Virus record (IMG/VR): IMGVR_UViG_3300002503_000004
Location: 17,093 to 62,601 of that record
DNA from: a virus
DNA length: 45,509 nucleotides
Direction: 5' to 3' (one strand)
Of the stretch, positions 22,917 through 23,031 are shown one piece after another. The stretch's first letter is position 1. Each line of letters starts with the position of its first letter. Under the pieces are notes generated by a model that saw only the letters and a list, made by a program, of their open reading frames with translations, was not told the DNA's origin and made no database searches. The translations under genes and the position numbers were made by a program.

Positions 22917-23031
22917 GAGAGCGAGGCCTCTAGCCAGCAAGCCACATTTTCACCAAGGAGGTATCAGTTTGGCGCAATCAACATCCCGCGAATGAATTTT
23001 GATGCGCCGGAGAATTTGAGACCTCGCTCTC
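22917..23031 (-). ncRNA. First RNA of the array, 10-bp closed (115 nt)
   Basis: GAGAGCGAGG and CCTCGCTCTC form a perfect 10-bp end-to-end stem. Inside, GGCGCATCAA pairs with TTGA(T)TGCGCC with one bulged T. The strand is set by the promoter at 23047-23075: its predicted start near 23040 is just before the stem, and AGTTTTTGG follows the 3' end as a weak T run. Same design as the two other hairpin-closed RNAs. Function unknown. Confidence 0.55.

What the first reader, a model, noticed from the sequence alone, without database searches (positions are those of the whole stretch)
22917..23031. Promoter-proximal 115-nt RNA closed by a 10-bp stem
Seen: the predicted start site near 23040 sits just before GAGAGCGAGG, and CCTCGCTCTC ends the element, with T-rich sequence after it. 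The same plan (ends paired, about 90-115 nt) returns at 22652-22740 and 22412-22516. Inference: first Y-like RNA of the array.
Basis: partly seen in the sequence, partly recalled or inferred. Interest (0 to 1): 0.7.

Follow-up and report, generated by a model that had tools for sequence, protein, structure and literature searches.

The report
Phage Ro60 RNA array's leader hairpin
The hairpin is real and sits right behind a strong promoter, but it is probably only the first spacer of a viral RNA array; neighbouring tRNAs and one other hairpin in that array carry a conserved docking stem that a Ro60-like protein encoded next door most likely holds.

Summary
Observation confirmed. On the minus strand an 11/12 sigma70 promoter (23075-23047) is followed at once by a 115-nt element whose ends pair (14 bp with a G-U pair; fold z -5.05). 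Closed stems alternate with tRNAs behind it. The 528-aa protein folds like Ro60 (VIA Z 18.4 to Xenopus Ro60) though Pfam's TROVE profile misses it. About 100 related loci in phages and bacteria pair it with ARPP-1, mostly beside tRNA arrays. Those arrays hold a covarying RNA family: a 7-bp helix, a bulged C and a 3-nt bulge opposite (the published vertebrate Ro60 site), an upper helix, then a variable payload. The same stem is grafted, capped, into tRNA D-loops or variable loops. In the window it occurs in the tRNA-Tyr-like gene (22520-22648; E 2.8e-13 with a model built without the window), the tRNA-like gene 22743-22888, and most likely the hairpin 22412-22516. The element of the finding lacks it: uninterrupted helix, no GRACU...CAGYA motif, no model match. 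I read it as the 5' leader/spacer stem-loop of the array, not its first Y-like RNA. What is new is the array: a divergent Ro60/ARPP-1 system with Y-like stems built onto tRNAs.

The parts
23047..23075 (-). sigma70-type promoter of the array, TTGACA-17-GATAAT
   Evidence: 11 of 12 consensus matches, best in the region
22917..23031 (-). E1, the element of the finding: promoter-proximal stem-loop closed by 14 bp; read as 5' leader/spacer
   Evidence: z -5.05; closing pairs at probability 0.98 or more; no Ro60-site motif
22743..22888 (-). tA: tRNA-like gene with an 8-nt anticodon loop and a ~75-nt insert in the variable region holding a capped (permuted) Y-like stem, motif 22773-22793
   Evidence: Rfam tRNA 49 bits; full-length relatives in L034 (E 4e-5) and L023 (E 0.0018); motif and stem; R3 E 1.6e-6, resting largely on tRNA parts
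22652..22740 (-). E2: closed stem-loop spacer without the motif
   Evidence: z -2.73; no motif or model match
22520..22648 (-). tB: tRNA-Tyr(GUA)-like gene with a ~60-nt D-loop insert holding a capped Y-like stem, motif 22577-22597
   Evidence: R3, built without the window, 65 bits, E 2.8e-13; motif
22412..22516 (-). E3: closed Y-like stem-loop, motif 22490-22512
   Evidence: only full-length R1 match (11.1 bits, E 1.9); best structure-descriptor hit, score 41 against at most 37 in 40 shuffled strands; z -4.03
22373..22402 (-). terminator-like hairpin after E3
   Evidence: 13-bp stem with T-rich tail
22291..22362 (-). tRNA-Gly(UCC)
   Evidence: ARAGORN and Rfam 64.1 bits
22210..22289 (-). E4: a further closed stem (10 bp or more) after tRNA-Gly, without the motif
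   Evidence: sequence and fold
20071..21657 (-). Ro60-like (helical ring plus vWA) protein, 528 aa
   Evidence: AlphaFold pLDDT 86; top Foldseek hits Ro60/Rsr; VIA Z 18.4; MIDAS DGSYS
18755..19849 (-). ARPP-1 protein, 364 aa
   Evidence: Pfam PF20208 E 7.2e-14; directly follows the Ro60-like gene in 56 of 56 near-clade loci

Best explanation
The region is one minus-strand unit: a viral tRNA/Y-like-RNA array followed by a divergent Ro60-like gene and ARPP-1. SHOWN: promoter match, folds, homology and covariation of the Y-like stem in relatives, its presence in tB and (well supported) tA, and the Ro60 fold of the protein. INFERRED: the Ro60-like ring binds that stem (lower helix, bulged C, GRACU...CAGYA) in tA, tB and E3 and so holds complete tRNAs or tRNA-like RNAs as payload; during infection this would store, protect or help repair tRNAs against host anticodon nucleases, with ARPP-1 acting on damaged RNA or sugar ends. 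E1, the element of the finding, is the 5'-terminal leader/spacer stem-loop of that transcript: a long perfect helix that would protect the 5' end and offer a processing site (RNase III type) to release tA. E1 is not itself a Ro60-site RNA.
For: Promoter directly upstream of E1; E1 fold z -5.05. Ro60 fold. ARPP-1 partner directly downstream in 56/56 near-clade loci and tRNAs upstream in 54/65, also in many distant loci. Closed Y-like RNA family with two-sided covariation and the published Ro60-site geometry of 7 bp, bulged C, 3-nt bulge opposite (PMC4726728). tRNAs with the stem in the D-loop: 95 both-side cells against 23.5 +- 4.7 shuffled, window tB E 2.8e-13 out of sample, distant phages too. 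All R1 and R3 matches in 44 loci lie on the gene strand. The motif is at three places in the window, none in E1.
Against: No binding, expression or processing data. E3's match to the model is weak (E 1.9). The motif-free test of the ACU position in distant loci is only modestly positive (23 of 281 arms on the gene strand against 11 of 282 on the other). The leader/spacer role of E1 rests on position and on absence of features; no relative of E1 is known. tRNA protection or repair is inferred from context only.
Confidence: 0.55

Rival explanations
1. E1 is itself a Y-like RNA of the Ro60-like protein, with a diverged binding site.
For: Size (115 nt), ends paired, first RNA of a Ro60-linked array, same general plan as E3. 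Bacterial Y RNAs are known to be very divergent (PMC4726728).
Against: Uninterrupted 14-bp helix, no bulged C; no motif; no model or descriptor match.
Confidence: 0.2
2. The closed stems and the tRNA inserts are tRNA-processing or intron-like elements with no Ro60 involvement; the Ro60-like gene is only a neighbour.
For: The motif often lies right at tRNA 5' ends, and tRNA arrays with variable spacers beside other gene sets are known (PMC10910872).
Against: The array and the Ro60-like/ARPP-1 pair stay together across many phages and bacteria; the RNA has the published Ro60-site geometry; the insert is kept and covaries.
Confidence: 0.2
3. E1 is a chance inverted repeat in an unstructured leader.
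For: About 3 such 10-bp repeats are expected by chance in the window and 8 were seen; no conservation data for E1.
Against: z -5.05, 0 of 200 shuffles; 14 bp including a G-U pair that favours the transcribed strand; placed right behind the promoter and in step with the other closed stems.
Confidence: 0.05

Closest known systems
Ro60/Rsr with Y RNAs (vertebrate Ro60; D. radiodurans Rsr; Thermus phage phiLo Ro60 structure 9l5y; TROVE proteins in jumbo phages, PMC7824862)
   Same: Ro60 fold with vWA and MIDAS; small RNAs with a 7-bp helix, bulged C and 3-nt opposite bulge encoded next door
   Different: Sequence too far for the Pfam TROVE profile; paired with ARPP-1; the stem is joined to complete tRNAs in tRNA arrays; binding untested
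YrlA-type bacterial Y RNA (Rfam RF02553)
   Same: A Ro60-site stem combined with a tRNA-like part
   Different: Here real tRNA genes with anticodons carry the stem in the D-loop or variable loop, or sit in its apical loop; the best RF02553 score in the array region is 20.9 bits against a gathering score of 69
tRNA arrays with variable spacers (Altae-Tran et al. 2023, PMC10910872)
   Same: tRNA arrays with similarly sized variable spacers and associated protein genes
   Different: Their named partners are RNase R, RNase H and a Pol III epsilon-like exonuclease; a Ro60-like/ARPP-1 pair or a Y-like stem is not named in the main text
ARPP systems (PMC9503650)
   Same: ARPP-1 domain, proposed there to act on ribose moieties
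   Different: Published neighbours are ARG, rhodanese-phosphatase, HIRAN, WYL and a deacetylase, not a Ro60-like protein or tRNA arrays

Membership tests
Y RNA (as claimed for 22917-23031) | 5' and 3' ends pair in an RNA of about 100 nt | tested here: met
   115 nt, 14-bp closing helix
Y RNA (as claimed for 22917-23031) | Ro60 site: 7-bp helix, single bulged C, 3-nt bulge on the opposite strand | tested here: not met
   helix uninterrupted over 14 bp; no motif; no model match
Y RNA (as claimed for 22917-23031) | bound and stabilised by a Ro60 orthologue | not testable with these tools
   needs pull-down
Y RNA (E3, 22412-22516) | Ro60 site geometry | tested here: inconclusive
   8-bp helix and the conserved C, but the internal loop is 2 against 4 nt in the predicted fold; full-length but weak R1 match; descriptor score above all shuffles
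Y RNA (closed RNAs of the related phages) | Ro60 site: 7-bp helix, single bulged C, 3-nt bulge on the opposite strand | tested here: met
   40 sequences, helix pairs 96% formed with covariation; lower-stem letters were part of the search pattern, the bulge and upper helix were not
Ro60/TROVE protein | helical ring plus C-terminal vWA fold | tested here: met
   VIA Z 18.4 over 402 residues, 4.3 A, to 2i91; Foldseek E 2.3e-6 to 9nf8
Ro60/TROVE protein | vWA MIDAS DxSxS | tested here: met
   DGSYS, D372/S374/S376 invariant in 32 members
Ro60/TROVE protein | recognised by the Pfam TROVE profile | tested here: not met
   no TROVE match in any of 32 members at E up to 10
Ro60/TROVE protein | binds Y RNA on its outer surface | not testable with these tools
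   needs binding assay
YrlA (RF02553) | score at or above the Rfam gathering threshold | tested here: not met
   best 20.9 bits against 69, on 22475-22572, none on E1

The most novel reading that the evidence does not exclude
A deep family of Ro60-like proteins with ARPP-1, shared by huge phages and bacteria, works with tRNA arrays in which complete tRNAs carry a Ro60-docking stem (around the tRNA or inserted in its D-loop or variable loop). These tRNA-Y RNA chimeras would be a tRNA-holding or tRNA-repair RNP and a possible evolutionary link between tRNAs and Y RNAs.
Probability: 0.5. Interest if true: 0.85.

Novelty: new variant of a known kind. Interest (0 to 1): 0.62.

Why it matters
Why bacterial Y RNAs look like tRNAs, what Ro60 does in bacteria and phages, and what phage tRNA arrays are for are open questions. 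A conserved locus that joins a Ro60-like protein, ARPP-1 and tRNAs bearing a Ro60-site-like stem makes all three testable in one small system. It would also explain one kind of variable spacer in tRNA arrays.

Tried and rejected
Direct viral scans with the 528-aa protein, the DnaB-like helicase, the 248-aa neighbour and the 688-aa protein found no close relative of this virus, so conservation of E1 could not be tested. nhmmer with E1, E2 and E3 against all loci found only the window itself. The idea that every array tRNA lies inside a closing stem was tested by flank complementarity and not supported overall (own flanks -19.7 against -21.8 kcal/mol for mismatched flanks); dense arrays are dominated by neighbouring tRNAs, although single cases are striking (L004 tRNA-Val, L030 tRNA-Thr and tRNA-Ser). 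A strict closed-stem descriptor found 19 hits on the gene strand against 3 on the other in 27 distant loci, too insensitive for counting. A motif-free inverted-repeat count gave only modest ACU enrichment. MFE in fixed 110-nt windows does not single out E1, because the 55-nt steps miss its ends. Group I intron, archaeal BHB intron and permuted tmRNA were considered for the inserts: Rfam gives no such match at gathering scores, and the inserts are too short for group I (established knowledge). No Rfam self-cleaving ribozyme matched. Literature searches for ARPP-1 with TROVE or vWA, tRNA array with vWA, and Ro60 with phage found no description of this system; the library lacks most subscription papers.

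Full report
WHAT WAS CHECKED. The window is 45.5 kb of a 62.6-kb IMG/VR viral record. On the minus strand a promoter-like site TTGACA-17-GATAAT (11/12) lies at 23075-23047. The element 22917-23031 (E1) follows at once. Its ends pair over 14 bp, one of them a U-G pair that becomes a C-A mismatch on the other strand; fold -50.3 kcal/mol, z -5.05. It is followed by a tRNA-like gene (tA, 22743-22888), a closed hairpin (E2, 22652-22740), a second tRNA-like gene (tB, 22520-22648), a closed hairpin (E3, 22412-22516), a terminator-like hairpin (22402-22373), tRNA-Gly (22291-22362), a 144-aa frame, the 528-aa gene (20071-21657) and an ARPP-1 gene (18755-19849).

THE PROTEIN. Pfam and PHROGs are silent. 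Relatives were found first in a 462-kb phage (25% identity, E 5e-23), then in about 100 loci (some are the same contig fetched twice). With 32 relatives AlphaFold gives pLDDT 86. The eleven Foldseek matches with E below 0.001 are all Ro60, Rsr or TROVE structures; VIA Z is 18.4 to Xenopus Ro60, 14.5 to Thermus phage phiLo Ro60 and 11.5 to D. radiodurans Rsr. The MIDAS residues are invariant. None of the 32 members matches the Pfam TROVE profile, so I call the protein Ro60-like by fold and do not file it in that Pfam family.

THE LOCUS IN RELATIVES. The gene is followed on the same strand by ARPP-1 in 56 of 56 near-clade loci that extend far enough, and in most distant loci; L019 and L020 lack it. 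ARAGORN tRNAs lie upstream in 54 of 65 near-clade loci. Distant cases range from L004 (37 tRNAs around the pair) through deltaproteobacteria and Planctomycetes to several huge phages; a few distant loci (L008, L018) show no ARAGORN tRNA in the stretch held.

THE RNA FAMILY. In the near clade a motif GAACU...CAGYA occurs in the array in three settings: just before a tRNA, in a tRNA D-loop, and in a closed hairpin. Forty closed hairpins of 69-101 nt align. Their layout is a 7-bp helix, a bulged C, a 2-bp step with a 3-nt bulge opposite, and an upper helix with two-sided changes (46 cells against 21.7 +- 3.1 shuffled; slid versions at most 21). [quoted passage not shown] The lower-stem letters were part of my search pattern, so their invariance is not evidence; the upper-helix covariation and the 3-nt bulge are. 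In D-loop inserts the same stem is permuted: the lower helix is capped by a short loop and the upper helix opens into the tRNA. That tRNA family covaries strongly in acceptor, insert, anticodon and T helices (95 cells against 23.5 +- 4.7). In 44 near-clade loci all 70 R1 matches (E up to 1e-6) and all 47 R3 matches (E up to 1e-8) lie on the gene strand. R3 also finds full-length members in distant L032, L014, L002 and L030 (E 1e-17 to 1e-10). Some R1 matches hold a whole tRNA in the apical loop (L055 4706-4836).

THE WINDOW. The motif occurs exactly three times in the window, all on the minus strand in the array: tA 22773-22793, tB 22577-22597, E3 22490-22512. A simple base-frequency estimate expects about three anywhere in the window, so what counts is that all three fall in 0.35 kb, inside the array and on its strand. 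R3, built without the window, hits tB with 65 bits, E 2.8e-13, and tA with E 1.6e-6 (the tA match rests largely on its tRNA parts, because its insert is in another place). tA has full-length relatives with an insert at the same place in L034 and L023. E3 is the only full-length R1 match but a weak one (E 1.9); a structure descriptor ranks it first in the window and above all 40 shuffled strands. E1 and E2 match none of these.

WHAT E1 MOST LIKELY IS. It is the 5' end of the array transcript, with an uninterrupted helix and no Ro60-site feature. The simplest reading is a leader/spacer stem-loop that protects and separates the transcript, possibly an RNase III-type processing stem (inference). 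That it is a diverged Y-like RNA cannot be excluded (0.2), because no relative of E1 was found in the searched collections.

MECHANISM PROPOSED. The Ro60-like ring holds tA, tB and E3 by the Y-like stem, keeping complete or variant tRNAs as payload. tA has an 8-nt anticodon loop (read by eye), and several relatives also have odd loops (L003, L007, L015). With ARPP-1, whose proposed substrates are ribose moieties (PMC9503650), this could store, shield or repair tRNAs when host nucleases attack. Binding and function are inference; promoter match, structure, homology and covariation are shown. Confidence 0.55.

NOVELTY. Phage Ro60/TROVE proteins (PMC7824862) and bacterial Y RNAs with tRNA-like modules are known, and tRNA arrays with variable spacers have been flagged (PMC10910872). 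The Ro60-like/ARPP-1 pairing, the tRNA arrays around it and stems grafted onto tRNAs were not found in the literature searched. I rate it a new variant of a known kind; the finding's own element is the least informative part of it.

Noticed in passing
window 22210-22289 (-): A fourth closed stem (E4) right after tRNA-Gly, 10 bp or more (CTCTGTCCTG/CAGGACGGAG), also without the motif; a T-arm-like GGTTCGATACC lies about 60 nt further on without a clear tRNA 5' half.
   Followed up: partly
L038 5958-6050; L037 4160-4245: A T-arm plus acceptor plus CCA is followed by a tRNA 5' half with a matching acceptor strand (TATCCCCACCA ... GGGGATATAG), as in permuted tRNA genes, flanked by sequences conserved between the two phages.
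   Followed up: partly
L030 3940-4088 and around tRNA-Ser 4325-4400; L004 around tRNA-Val 9551-9623: tRNAs enclosed by long (about 20 bp) complementary flanks with GGACU or GAACU after the lower stem.
   Followed up: partly
L003 9585, 12644, 12733; L007 7491; L015 7786; L049 6102: tRNAs in these arrays with odd anticodon loops (two- or four-letter anticodons by ARAGORN, one UUA stop-reading), possible decoys or nuclease-resistant forms.
   Followed up: no
L014 (contig labelled Candidatus Pacearchaeota): The Ro60-like/ARPP-1 pair and a D-loop-insert tRNA (6-139, E 1e-15) on a short contig binned as an archaeon; it may be a phage or a binning error.
   Followed up: no
window 16580-16689 and 16965-17074 (-): The strongest local RNA folds of the window (z -8.9 and -6.9), outside the array, function not examined.
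   Followed up: no
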